NCBI GenBank assembly: GCA_937958145.1
Contig: CALGOE010000232.1
Location: 1-34,706 of the forward strand
DNA length: 34,706 bases
Reading direction: 5' to 3'
Source of the DNA: an uncultured Desulfobacca sp.
GTDB taxonomy: Bacteria; Desulfobacterota; Desulfobaccia; Desulfobaccales; Desulfobaccaceae
Position 1 is the stretch's first letter, and the number at the start of each line of letters is the position of its first letter. This document shows positions 5,714 through 9,036 of this stretch, piece by piece. Under the pieces are notes generated by a model. It was not told the DNA's origin. It was given only the letters and a program-made list of their open reading frames with translations, and ran no database searches. A program made the position numbers and the translations under genes.

Positions 5714-7015
5714 ATGGCCGACGTTCCTTTGCTGTTATGCCTCAATCCCTGGGTCTATGATTTTGCTGCCCACGATTTTTTTGCTCGGCCGTTGGGTTTG
5801 CTTTTGCTGGCGGGACAATTGCGGGCCGCCGGCTACCGGGTGGCGCTGCTGGACTGCCTCAGTCGGCCGCTGACCGGCCGGAGCCCCACCGGGCGGTGGC
5901 CCAAAGAAATTCTGCCGACACCGCCGCCCCTGCAGGGGGTGCCCCGGCATTATGGACGGTATGGCTTGCCTCCGGACCAGGTGCGCCAAGCTTTGGCCGC
6001 CCTCCCCCAGCCTCCGGCGGCGGTGCTGGTAACGTCGCTGATGACCTATTGGTATCCCGGAGTGCAGGCCGCCATCCGGCTGGTGCGGGAACACTTCCCG
6101 GCGGTTCCGGTAATTTTGGGGGGCATTTATGCCTCTCTGGTCCCGGAGCACGCCAAGGCCAACAGCGGTGCCGATTTTGTCATCACCGGGCCGGGAGAAG
6201 AGGCGGTTCTGGCATTGCTGGCCGATCTCACCGGCTTTGCAGGCCAGACGAACGCCAGGGCAGGGGTTTATCCGGCCTGGGACCTGCTGCCCGACCGGCG
6301 GTTGCTGCCGATCCTGACTTCCCGGGGCTGCCCCTTTGATTGCGATTATTGTGCCTCCCGCCTCCTGGCGCCGGTCTTTCGGCGGCGACAGCCCGATGAG
6401 GTGGTGGCGGAGCTCCATGACTGGCATAGACGCTTCGGAGTTAGGGATGTGGCCTTTTATGACGACGCCCTGTTGGTGCAGGCCGAACAGCATCTCTTGC
6501 CGATTTTAGAAGGGGTGAGGCGCCTCAAGCTGCCGCTGCGGTTTCATACGCCCAATGCCCTGCACCTCGGTCTGCTTACTCCGGATATTGCCCGGTGGCT
6601 GCGGCAGGCCAACTTTGCCACCCTGCGACTGGGGCTGGAGACGATGGAAAGCGACGGGAGCCGACGGGATCGGAAAGTCCAGGCCGGTGATCTGGCGCGG
6701 GGCGTGGCGGCCCTGCGGGAGGCTGGTTTCACCGCCGACCAGATCGGCGTCTATCTCCTCCTGGGGTTGCCGCATCAGGAGGATGCGGCGGTGGAGGCTG
6801 CCATCAGGGCTGTCCGTCGGGTGGGGGCAACGCCGGTTTTGGCCCAGTATTCGCCCATTCCGGGGACCGCCCTGTGGCCGGAGGCGGTCCAGGTCTCCCG
6901 CTATGACCTGGCCGCGGACCCCATTTTCCACAACAATTCCATTTTCCCCTGTTGGCCGGAATTTTCCTGGGAGCGGTACACCAGATTAAAGAACCTGGCC
7001 GCCGGTCGGGGCTGA
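5714..7015 (+). CDS. B12-binding-domain radical SAM protein
   Basis: N-terminal B12-binding-like region (VILGGIYASLVPEHAKANSGADFVITGPGEEAVLALL) and radical SAM CxxxCxxC (TSRGCPFDCDYCAS). Confidence 0.9.
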   Translation: MADVPLLLCLNPWVYDFAAHDFFARPLGLLLLAGQLRAAGYRVALLDCLSRPLTGRSPTGRWPKEILPTPPPLQGVPRHYGRYGLPPDQVRQALAALPQPPAAVLVTSLMTYWYPGVQAAIRLVREHFPAVPVILGGIYASLVPEHAKANSGADFVITGPGEEAVLALLADLTGFAGQTNARAGVYPAWDLLPDRRLLPILTSRGCPFDCDYCASRLLAPVFRRRQPDEVVAELHDWHRRFGVRDVAFYDDALLVQAEQHLLPILEGVRRLKLPLRFHTPNALHLGLLTPDIARWLRQANFATLRLGLETMESDGSRRDRKVQAGDLARGVAALREAGFTADQIGVYLLLGLPHQEDAAVEAAIRAVRRVGATPVLAQYSPIPGTALWPEAVQVSRYDLAADPIFHNNSIFPCWPEFSWERYTRLKNLAAGRG

Positions 7016-7028
7016 ACCAAGGAGAAGG

Positions 7029-7748
7029 ATGGGAACGTCGACTGCCCGGAAAGCGCCACCAAAAGGGGCGTATTGGCGGAAGGCCAAGACGGCTGCAGCC
7101 CACTATGCCGCCCACGGGGAGGCGGCCCGCCTGTCGGTGGCGGAAGTGGTGGCTCGGTATGCCGTAGCGGTGGCGCCGGTGGGGTGGGATAGCCAACCGG
7201 ACCAGAACCTGTTGGAGGCAACGGCGCGTACCGCCGCGGCCCTGAACAGGTTTTATGAAACCTGGGAAGCCCAGGGCTGGCAGCGGGCCCTGGCCCAGCT
7301 CGGCATTGCGGCCCACGCCGGACACAACTGGGAGGCCCTGATGCCGGCTCTGCTCGACGCCCTGGCCGGGCCGGGGGCCCATCTGGCTGAAGCCGTGGCG
7401 AGAACCGCTCTGTTGGACCATTTCGCCGCCATGGGCCTGCTGGACGATGTGGCCGCGGCCGTCACCGGCAATGTCGACGCACCGCCGCTGCCCCCCGGCG
7501 ACGGCGCTTGGCATTTCCTGGCGTTGGCCCTGTTTCACCGTTATATCGCCGATATGGGGGAGACCTTGGAATTTCATGCCCCGTCTGTGGCGGCGGGGCG
7601 GGAGCGCCAGGAAGCCATCCGAGCCCACTTCCTGGCGCAGCTGAACCTGCTGCTCTCCCTGACCGGCGAAGAAGATGGTTGGCAGAGCCAACCGCTGACC
7701 TGGGTGGAAAATTTCCTCGGTCTGTTGGCAAACTACCATGGCCGTTAA
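7029..7748 (+). CDS. QatB-like protein of a Qat-type anti-phage locus
   Basis: 239 aa, starts MGTST..P..G.YW..AKT.., LSVAEVVARY; overlaps the downstream QueC-like gene; assignment rests on the MGTS N-terminus and the coupling to a QatC-like gene. Confidence 0.6.
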   Translation: MGTSTARKAPPKGAYWRKAKTAAAHYAAHGEAARLSVAEVVARYAVAVAPVGWDSQPDQNLLEATARTAAALNRFYETWEAQGWQRALAQLGIAAHAGHNWEALMPALLDALAGPGAHLAEAVARTALLDHFAAMGLLDDVAAAVTGNVDAPPLPPGDGAWHFLALALFHRYIADMGETLEFHAPSVAAGRERQEAIRAHFLAQLNLLLSLTGEEDGWQSQPLTWVENFLGLLANYHGR

Positions 7749-9036
7749 GATCCTGTTGCAGCCGGGACCGCCGCCGGCCGACCTGGCGCGGCTTTCCTTT
7801 GATCATGTGGTGGGATTGCAACCCTCACCCCTGCCGGTAAAAATACACCACAATTTAGGTCTACTGGCGGGCGGCCGCACCGTCCTGCCGGAGCGGGTGT
7901 TGACGGCGCTGGTGGTGAGTCTGGGCGTCTGGGCCGCGGATAAGTTGGTCCCCCGGCGCCAGGCCGAGGATGCCTGGACCAGATATCTGGAGGTGTCGTG
8001 CCCGGCGCCGGCGTGGGGAGAGGCGCTCATGGGCCTGGCTGGTCTGCTGGATTTTCTCACCGGCGACATCTGGATGGTGCGAGCCCGGTCGGCCCGGCCC
8101 TGGCTGCCCATGGTCCTGCGGCCAGAAACGGCCTGGCAGCCGGACTGCGTCTGCCTTTTTTCCGGCGGTTTGGACTCCCTGACCGGGGCCATTGATCTTC
8201 TGGAAAGCGGCCGCCGGGTCCTCCTGGTCAGCCACTACGATTTCGGCCAACTGGCCAGCTGCCAGAATTATCTGACGGAGGCCCTGAAGCAGGCCTATGG
8301 TCCGGACCGGGTCCGACGCTGGGGGTTTCGAATCCAGTTTGAAGCGCCGGAATTGAGTCTGCGCAGCCGGTCGCTGTTATTCCTGACCCTGGGCGTGGCG
8401 GCCGCCTCGGTCTGGGAGGAGCCTGTGCCGGTAATTGTCCCGGAAAACGGCTGGATCAGCCTCAACCCACCCCTGACCGGCAACCGTCTGGGGAGCTACA
8501 GCACCCGCACCACACACCCTTATTTTCTCACCGGCCTGCGGCAGTGGCTGGCCAGCCTCGGTATGGGGCTCAGCATTGAGAATCCCTATCAGTATCTTAC
8601 CAAAGGGGAGGTGCTGCGGGGCTGCCGACGGCAATCCCTGCTGCGGCAGTTGGTGCCCTTTACCCTTTCCTGCGCCCATCCGGTGGCTTCCCGGTGGCTC
8701 AAAGGCCGGCAGGGGAATTGCGGCTACTGTTATCCCTGCCTGATCCGGCGGGCGGCCTTAGAGGCCGTGGGCTGGGATAACGGCGGGGAGTATCTGGTGG
8801 ATGTGCGCCAGGAGCCGAAAGTTTTGGCCAGCCGGACCAAGGGGGCCGATCTGCGGAGCCTCCTCTACCTCCTGGAGACCGGGCGGGATGGTGCGGCGCT
8901 CCACCGTCTCCTGTGGCAGACCGGGCCCCTGCCGGTTCCCGCAGCAGCGCAACGGGGTTTATTGGCGGTGCTGCGGCGGGGGTTGGAGGAGATCACTGCT
9001 TGGTGGGGAAGCGGGAAAATGTGCGCCGGGCGGTGA
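7738..9036 (+). CDS. QatC-like QueC-family protein (PP-loop, zinc-binding C-terminus)
   Basis: ~145-aa N-terminal extension, PP-loop CLFSGGLDSLTGAIDLL, and C-terminal C-x15-CGYCYPCLIRRAAL Zn site as in QueC; 11-bp overlap with upstream gene. Confidence 0.8.
   Translation: MAVKILLQPGPPPADLARLSFDHVVGLQPSPLPVKIHHNLGLLAGGRTVLPERVLTALVVSLGVWAADKLVPRRQAEDAWTRYLEVSCPAPAWGEALMGLAGLLDFLTGDIWMVRARSARPWLPMVLRPETAWQPDCVCLFSGGLDSLTGAIDLLESGRRVLLVSHYDFGQLASCQNYLTEALKQAYGPDRVRRWGFRIQFEAPELSLRSRSLLFLTLGVAAASVWEEPVPVIVPENGWISLNPPLTGNRLGSYSTRTTHPYFLTGLRQWLASLGMGLSIENPYQYLTKGEVLRGCRRQSLLRQLVPFTLSCAHPVASRWLKGRQGNCGYCYPCLIRRAALEAVGWDNGGEYLVDVRQEPKVLASRTKGADLRSLLYLLETGRDGAALHRLLWQTGPLPVPAAAQRGLLAVLRRGLEEITAWWGSGKMCAGR

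What the first reader, a model, noticed from the sequence alone, without database searches (positions are those of the whole stretch)
5714..9036. Reduced Qat-like defence module: qatB-like + qatC-like pair in a tight operon with a B12-type radical SAM gene, without adjacent qatA or qatD
Sequence: three plus-strand genes are nearly contiguous. The radical SAM stop at 7015 is 13 bp from ATG 7029, preceded by an AAGGAGAAGG RBS, and 7029-7748 overlaps 7738-9036 by 11 bp. The third gene has a PP-loop (FSGGLDS) and a C-terminal CGYCYPC Zn site as in QueC, but with a ~145-aa N-terminal extension, no other queuosine gene nearby, and a partner whose N-terminus is MGTS. Knowledge: QatABCD anti-phage systems comprise an ATPase (A), an uncharacterised protein (B), a QueC-like protein (C) and a TatD-like nuclease (D). 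Inference: this is a BC-only or chimeric variant in which the radical SAM enzyme may replace missing functions, or it is a non-defence ancestor of the QatBC core.
Basis: partly seen in the sequence, partly recalled or inferred. Interest (0 to 1): 0.85.

Follow-up and report, generated by a model that had tools for sequence, protein, structure and literature searches.

The report
Order-wide minimal QatBC protein-modification pair
A two-protein core (QatB plus its presumed modifying enzyme QatC) known from a rare, mobile anti-phage system is carried here without the system's other two genes, in altered form, by nearly every genome of a whole bacterial order, so it looks like a resident gene set rather than a passing defence system.

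Summary
The three genes exist as described. The second and third encode QatB and QatC: QatC passes NCBIfam's cut-off, both AlphaFold models match the solved QatBC complex, and QatB keeps MGTS. QatA is absent from all 29 genomes of the order; no QatD was recognised at the loci. (1) QatC occurs in 21 of 22 good genomes (11 of 11 genera) of the order containing Desulfobacca, as one clade following taxonomy, against 10 of 380 genomes elsewhere in the phylum, where several sit in qatABCD operons. (2) It is a variant: QatB's N-terminal tail is fixed at 14-15 residues (52-69 in standard QatB) with an invariant motif, and QatC has a QueC-like D[FY]GQLAxxQ motif that standard QatC lack. The radical SAM gene is contiguous in about 16 genomes, but relatives occur across the phylum without QatBC and it is separate in several genomes, so it is probably not a substitute for QatA/QatD. 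[quoted passage not shown] Whether this serves defence or a core function is open.

The parts
5714..7015 (+). B12-binding-domain radical SAM protein (433 aa), first gene of the cluster; conserved neighbour, probably not dedicated to QatBC
   Evidence: PF02310 9.6e-16 and PF04055 2e-13; CPFDCDYC cluster motif; phylum-wide relatives
7019..7028 (+). Shine-Dalgarno-like AAGGAGAAGG directly before qatB
   Evidence: sequence
7029..7748 (+). qatB-like gene (239 aa), short-tail variant, MGTS N-terminus
   Evidence: NCBIfam QatB 1.5e-10 (41 bits, below the 100-bit cut-off); PADLOC QatB 1.7e-8; AlphaFold model pLDDT 83, top PDB hits are QatB 9y01_A/9y02_A, TM 0.62/0.68, E 5.5e-4
7029..7073 (+). 15-residue N-terminal tail of QatB (MGTSTARKAPPKGAY), the presumed modified segment before W16
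   Evidence: 14-15 residues in 21 of 21 order sequences vs 52-69 in six standard QatB; M1 G2 T3 S4 R7 P10 invariant; residues 1-10 disordered in the model
7738..9036 (+). qatC-like gene (432 aa)
   Evidence: NCBIfam QatC 4.9e-103, 345 bits over cut-off 280; PADLOC QatC 7.7e-101; PDB 9vlk E=9.4e-61; AlphaFold vs 9y01_B TM 0.79/0.80, E 1.5e-24
8158..8178 (+). PP-loop FSGGLDS of QatC (residues 141-147)
   Evidence: alignment
8239..8265 (+). clade-specific D[FY]GQLAxxQ motif of QatC (residues 168-176), resembling QueC DYGQ
   Evidence: 22 of 22 order genomes, 0 of 9 QatC from qatABCD-type loci; D168 G170 Q171 L172 A173 Q176 invariant in 39 environmental proteins
8500..8520 (+). STRTTHP loop, carrying the Thr pair (T256, T258) matching QatC T278/T280 of P. 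aeruginosa
   Evidence: alignments
8671..8739 (+). Zn-site cysteines C312, C328, C331, C334 of QatC
   Evidence: alignment

Best explanation
The locus encodes a minimal, QatA/QatD-free QatB-QatC pair that was acquired or formed once in the ancestor of the Desulfobacca order and has since been inherited vertically as a near-universal chromosomal gene pair. Shown: family membership, folds, active-site residues, near-universal presence, one clade, purifying selection, absence of QatA. Inferred: after removal of Met1, the exposed Gly2 of QatB enters the QatC active site, where QatC uses ATP to activate a carboxylate substrate and joins it to the QatB N-terminus, as proposed for P. aeruginosa QatBC and shown for Cap9 in type IV CBASS. 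The QueC-like [FY]GQ element suggests, but does not prove, that the joined group is a 7-deazaguanine; the genome has queE, queC and a queD-type gene to make the precursor. The modified QatB is the active form. The radical SAM gene is an older conserved neighbour, not an essential component.
For: QatC over NCBIfam cut-off and PADLOC match. Foldseek top hits for both models are the solved QatBC complex. P-loop, T256/T258 and Zn cysteines are kept. In QatB (mean pairwise identity 38%) 10 of the 20 invariant positions fall in residues 1-20: M1 G2 T3 S4 R7 P10 W16 R17 A19 K20. QatC in 21 of 22 good genomes and 11 of 11 genera of the order vs 10 of 380 elsewhere in the phylum. One clade, 100/98, recovering the sampled genera and the second family; QatB, QatC and rSAM distances correlate (r 0.81-0.91). 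dN/dS 0.18-0.39 for QatB/QatC where computable. QatA not found in 29 order genomes but found in 3 of 4 control genomes with the same query. QatB and QatC lie apart in G007 and G010 yet both are kept. QueE fragment-QueC and QueD-type genes in the genome. Literature: QatBC without A and D defends against phage lambda-vir, and QatB Gly2 is essential (PMC13279940).
Against: QatB scores 41 bits against a 100-bit cut-off, so the formal QatB model does not call it. The QatB tail lacks the segment corresponding to residues 16-22 that standard QatB needs (PMC13279940). No chemistry has been demonstrated for any QatC. A defence role here is untested, and near-universal vertical presence is unusual for a defence system.
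Confidence: 0.72

Rival explanations
1. The pair has been domesticated for a non-defence housekeeping function in this order: a constitutive protein N-terminal modification, with no part in phage resistance.
For: Near-universal, single-copy, vertical presence; flanks such as larB, RNase HI, tilS, a two-component pair and a potassium channel rather than defence islands; maintenance after physical separation of qatB and qatC; purifying selection.
Against: Defence systems can also be fixed in a lineage; QatBC alone is sufficient for defence in the laboratory (PMC13279940); QatB evolves faster than QatC and rSAM (mean identity 38% vs 55% and 64%), which would also fit an arms race.
Confidence: 0.4
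2. A resident minimal anti-phage system: QatBC gives phage defence in this order as it does when A and D are removed from P. aeruginosa or E. coli operons.
For: Same fold, catalytic residues and MGTS motif; QatBC sufficiency for lambda-vir (PMC13279940); QatB is the fastest evolving of the three.
Against: No defence-island or mobile context seen at the loci examined; near-universal in the order.
Confidence: 0.45
3. The radical SAM/B12 enzyme is a functional third component that makes or alters the group attached to QatB, replacing QatA/QatD.
For: Contiguous, same strand, order rSAM-B-C in about 16 genomes of two families with different flanks; matching evolutionary distances.
Against: Relatives in many genomes of the phylum without QatBC; separated from QatBC in G010, G018 and G026, and linked to QatB but not QatC in G023.
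Confidence: 0.15
4. An ancestral, pre-defence form of the QatBC core from which qatABCD arose.
For: QueC-like D[FY]GQ motif in QatC; a tree with all A/D-type QatC as one clade apart from this one is not rejected (p-AU 0.078).
Against: Best trees place the clade among A/D-type QatC, next to a QatC that has a qatD-like gene beside it; narrow taxonomic spread.
Confidence: 0.1
5. Ordinary queuosine gene: the third gene is the genome's QueC.
For: PF06508 match 3.8e-7.
Against: A separate canonical QueC exists on C124 (2.3e-61) after a queE fragment; this gene has the QatC extensions and Thr pair instead of YPDC.
Confidence: 0.01

Closest known systems
qatABCD anti-phage system (Gao et al. 2020; structures 9y01/9y02, 9vlk/9vll, 9zee/9zef)
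   Same: QatB fold with MGTS start; QatC with PP-loop, Thr pair, Zn site and N- and C-terminal extensions; qatB immediately before qatC
   Different: no qatA found in the order, no qatD recognised at the loci; QatB tail 14-15 vs 52-69 residues in the compared proteins with a different conserved motif; QatC carries D[FY]GQLAxxQ; near-universal and vertical in one order; B12 radical SAM gene upstream
Truncated QatBC constructs of P. aeruginosa and E. coli (PMC13279940)
   Same: same two proteins without A and D, sufficient for defence against lambda-vir
   Different: those are laboratory deletions; this is a natural, fixed two-gene version with altered tail and active site
Type IV CBASS Cap9 with its CD-NTase
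   Same: QueC-family enzyme acting on the N-terminal glycine of a partner protein; Cap9 keeps a [YF]xQ element (PMC13329287), as this QatC does
   Different: partner is QatB, not a CD-NTase; Thr pair instead of Tyr/Asp; TM to Cap9 only 0.31 by query length
QueC (7-cyano-7-deazaguanine synthase)
   Same: PP-loop core, Zn site, DYGQ-like motif
   Different: large N- and C-terminal extensions, no YPDC or VPxRN signature; separate QueC in the same genome

Membership tests
QatC | NCBIfam NF041925 above its curated cut-off | tested here: met
   345 bits vs 280
QatC | SGGxDS loop, DxW, RxR, ExG, HP, P(x)4TK and CGxCxxCxxRR-type Zn motifs | tested here: met
   S142-S147, D110xW112, R209xR211, E236-G238, H260P261, P283(x)4TK, C312/C328/C331/C334
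QatC | Thr pair (T278/T280 in P. aeruginosa) in place of the QueC Tyr/Asp | tested here: met
   T256/T258
QatC | fold of the solved QatC | tested here: met
   TM 0.79/0.80 to 9y01_B
QatB | NCBIfam NF041924 above its curated cut-off | tested here: not met
   41 vs 100 bits; no genome of the order passes
QatB | MGTS N-terminus | tested here: met
   all 21 order genomes with an intact start; G003 uses a GTG start
QatB | fold of the solved QatB | tested here: met
   TM 0.62/0.68, E 5.5e-4, only significant PDB hits
QatB | long disordered tail (30-90 aa) with the P16/W18 segment | tested here: not met
   14-15 residue tail
qatABCD system | qatA (KAP NTPase) present | tested here: not met
   0 of 29 order genomes; control 3 of 4
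qatABCD system | qatD (TatD-like) beside qatC | tested here: not met
   no such gene next to qatC in the window; none recognised by reading the order loci, while found in G242, G078, G157, G195, G045. No dedicated TatD search of the order was run
qatABCD system | anti-phage activity | not testable with these tools
   needs a plaque assay
QueC | YxQxHxxE, VPxRN and YPDC signature | tested here: not met
   only the [FY]GQ part present; Thr pair in place of Tyr/Asp

The most novel reading that the evidence does not exclude
A defence-derived QatBC pair has become a core cellular protein-modification system in a whole bacterial order: QatC, with a QueC-like substrate motif, conjugates a 7-deazaguanine-type group to the N-terminal glycine of a short-tailed QatB, for a function unrelated to phage.
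Probability: 0.3. Interest if true: 0.8.

Novelty: new variant of a known kind. Interest (0 to 1): 0.58.

Why it matters
The chemistry of QatC is an open question and could not be reconstituted with the P. aeruginosa proteins (PMC13279940). A natural two-protein version with a short, nearly invariant 14-15 residue tail and a QueC-like active-site element is a simpler object for finding the reaction. Its fixation across an order also raises the question whether QueC-based protein modification serves a normal cellular role, with Desulfobacca acetoxidans as a named species of that order (identified from protein records).

Tried and rejected
Canonical QueC: rejected, the genome has its own QueC. 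QatA elsewhere in the genome: the only KAP hit (C52, 22 bits) lies in a pair of other AAA ATPase ORFs. rSAM as dedicated partner: weakened by phylum-wide spread and unlinked copies. The one good genome without QatC, QatB and rSAM (G013) also returned no TilS with a query from its own genus, although tilS flanks the cluster in that genus, so this may be an assembly gap rather than a loss (no positive control run). The genome-contig scan with the single protein found only one Desulfobacca MAG, a wasted scan. Phage collection: only distant Listeria phage hits, 24% identity. Promoter, terminator, Rfam and tRNA scans gave nothing above chance. Rooting with QueC is unreliable because of a very long branch. 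The PF06508 search of the own genome did not list QatC itself, so that tool's empty answers were not used alone. A QatB-QatC complex could not be modelled with the single-chain predictor.

Full report
Observation. The three + strand genes are present at the stated coordinates with the stated spacing. The first encodes a B12-binding domain plus radical SAM domain. The third scores 345 bits against NCBIfam QatC (cut-off 280) and 7.7e-101 against PADLOC QatC; the second matches QatB weakly (NCBIfam 41 bits against a cut-off of 100; PADLOC 1.7e-8).

Identity by structure. An AlphaFold model of the second gene product (pLDDT 83) has only two significant PDB matches, the QatB chains of the P. aeruginosa QatBC complex (TM 0.62/0.68, E 5.5e-4). 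The QatC model (pLDDT 85) matches the QatC chain at TM 0.79/0.80, with QueC and Cap9 next. Sequence search of PDB also finds QatC (9vlk, 9.4e-61) and QatB marginally (0.02).

What is conserved. The PP-loop, the QatC Thr pair (T256, T258), the four Zn cysteines and the other QatC motifs are kept in the order. In QatB, with mean pairwise identity 38%, the N-terminus is the most conserved part: M1 G2 T3 S4 R7 P10 W16 R17 A19 K20 are invariant across 19 genomes. The tail before the first long helix is 14 residues (15 in the window and G002) in all 21 order sequences compared, against 52-69 in six QatB proteins from qatABCD-type loci. A short-tail QatB outside the order (G214, L095) shows the short form is not unique to it. 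QatC carries D[FY]GQLAxxQ at residues 168-176 in 22 of 22 order genomes, and D168, G170, Q171, L172, A173 and Q176 are invariant in 39 environmental proteins; the nine QatC from qatABCD-type loci lack it, while the genome's own QueC has DYGQ at that place. In E. coli QueC the tyrosine of this motif is essential, and Cap9 keeps a [YF]xQ variant (PMC13329287). This suggests a 7-deazaguanine-type substrate; it is inference.

Distribution. In the window's order QatC is found in 25 of 29 genomes, 21 of 22 that are at least 90% complete and at most 5% contaminated, and 11 of 11 genera. Elsewhere in the phylum it is found in 10 of 380 sampled genomes. Of those ten, four show the order A-B-C-D in the sequence (G242, G078, G157, G195) and one (G045) has a qatD-like gene next to qatC; four others (G387, G207 and G348 examined, G043 by its similar length and score) are a longer, different kind, and G214 is a short contig with a short-tail QatB. 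Four plasmid relatives examined are full qatABCD. A QatA query finds nothing in the 29 order genomes and does find QatA in three of four control genomes. I did not run a dedicated QatD search.

Inheritance. All order QatC form one clade (100/98) in which the sampled genera and the second family are recovered. The rSAM tree shows one clade for the order too, and pairwise distances of the three proteins correlate (0.81-0.91). dN/dS between close pairs is 0.10-0.39 for the three genes. In G007 QatC lies away from rSAM and QatB, and in G010 all three lie on different contigs, interior for QatB and QatC, yet all are present. Flanking genes at the loci are housekeeping-like and differ between the families. 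This is the pattern of a resident chromosomal gene pair.

The radical SAM gene. It is contiguous with QatBC in about 16 genomes across both families, so the linkage is real. But 17 genomes of other families carry relatives at 35-53% identity; of these only G045 has a QatC (three more have only weak QueC-level matches), and there the two genes are on different contigs. Within the order it is separate from QatC in G007, G010, G018, G023 and G026. I conclude it is an older phylum-wide gene next to which QatBC settled; a functional tie is possible but not needed.

Mechanism. Published work shows QatBC without A and D protects against lambda-vir, that QatB Gly2 and the QatC PP-loop are essential, and proposes N-terminal modification of QatB by analogy with Cap9 (PMC13279940). 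PMC13329287 reports that only about a third of QatC-cluster genes have qatA or qatD beside them, so BC-only loci are not unheard of. The present locus fits the same mechanism with a shortened substrate tail. Steps shown: identity, residues, conservation, distribution. Steps inferred: modification at Gly2, nature of the added group, biological role.

Verdict. The Qat assignment is correct, the 'reduced' description is correct, and the radical SAM replacement idea is not supported. It is a new variant of a known kind whose near-universal presence in one order is the surprising part.

Noticed in passing
L096:5779-8659, L097:5255-8135 and L098:5039-7904 (genomes G387, G207, G348): A two-gene module of a 260-262 aa protein starting MGHVRLG and a QatC-like protein of about 700 aa; in G387 and G207 it is nearly identical across two families and has a recombinase-like ORF nearby, suggesting recent transfer and a QatBC cousin with MGHV instead of MGTS.
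   Followed up: partly
L095:776-2628 (genome G214): A short-tail QatB (MGTSSNQPSPKTPSW, 188 aa) directly before a divergent QatC outside the order, on a 3.6 kb contig, with no qatA seen.
   Followed up: no
L052:8638-10554 (genome G045): QatC followed by a qatD-like gene with no QatA detected; this QatC is the nearest branch to the order's clade in the tree.
   Followed up: partly
L039, L042-L047 and neighbours of QatC in family f2: A queD-type gene (PF01242) sits a few kilobases downstream of qatC on the opposite strand in several genomes of the second family, next to a cyclic-nucleotide-binding protein and a potassium channel gene.
   Followed up: no
L106:1083-3589 (own genome, contig C52): Two adjacent AAA ATPase-like ORFs with P-loops (YGGGKTHFL, YGRGKTHLL), resembling ATPases of BREX-type loci from memory; not tested.
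   Followed up: no
window 9800-13198, - strand: A 1132-aa ORF that joins a NuoF-like part, a GltD-like NAD(P)/FAD oxidoreductase part and ferredoxin domains, next to a molybdopterin oxidoreductase at 13901-16000.
   Followed up: no
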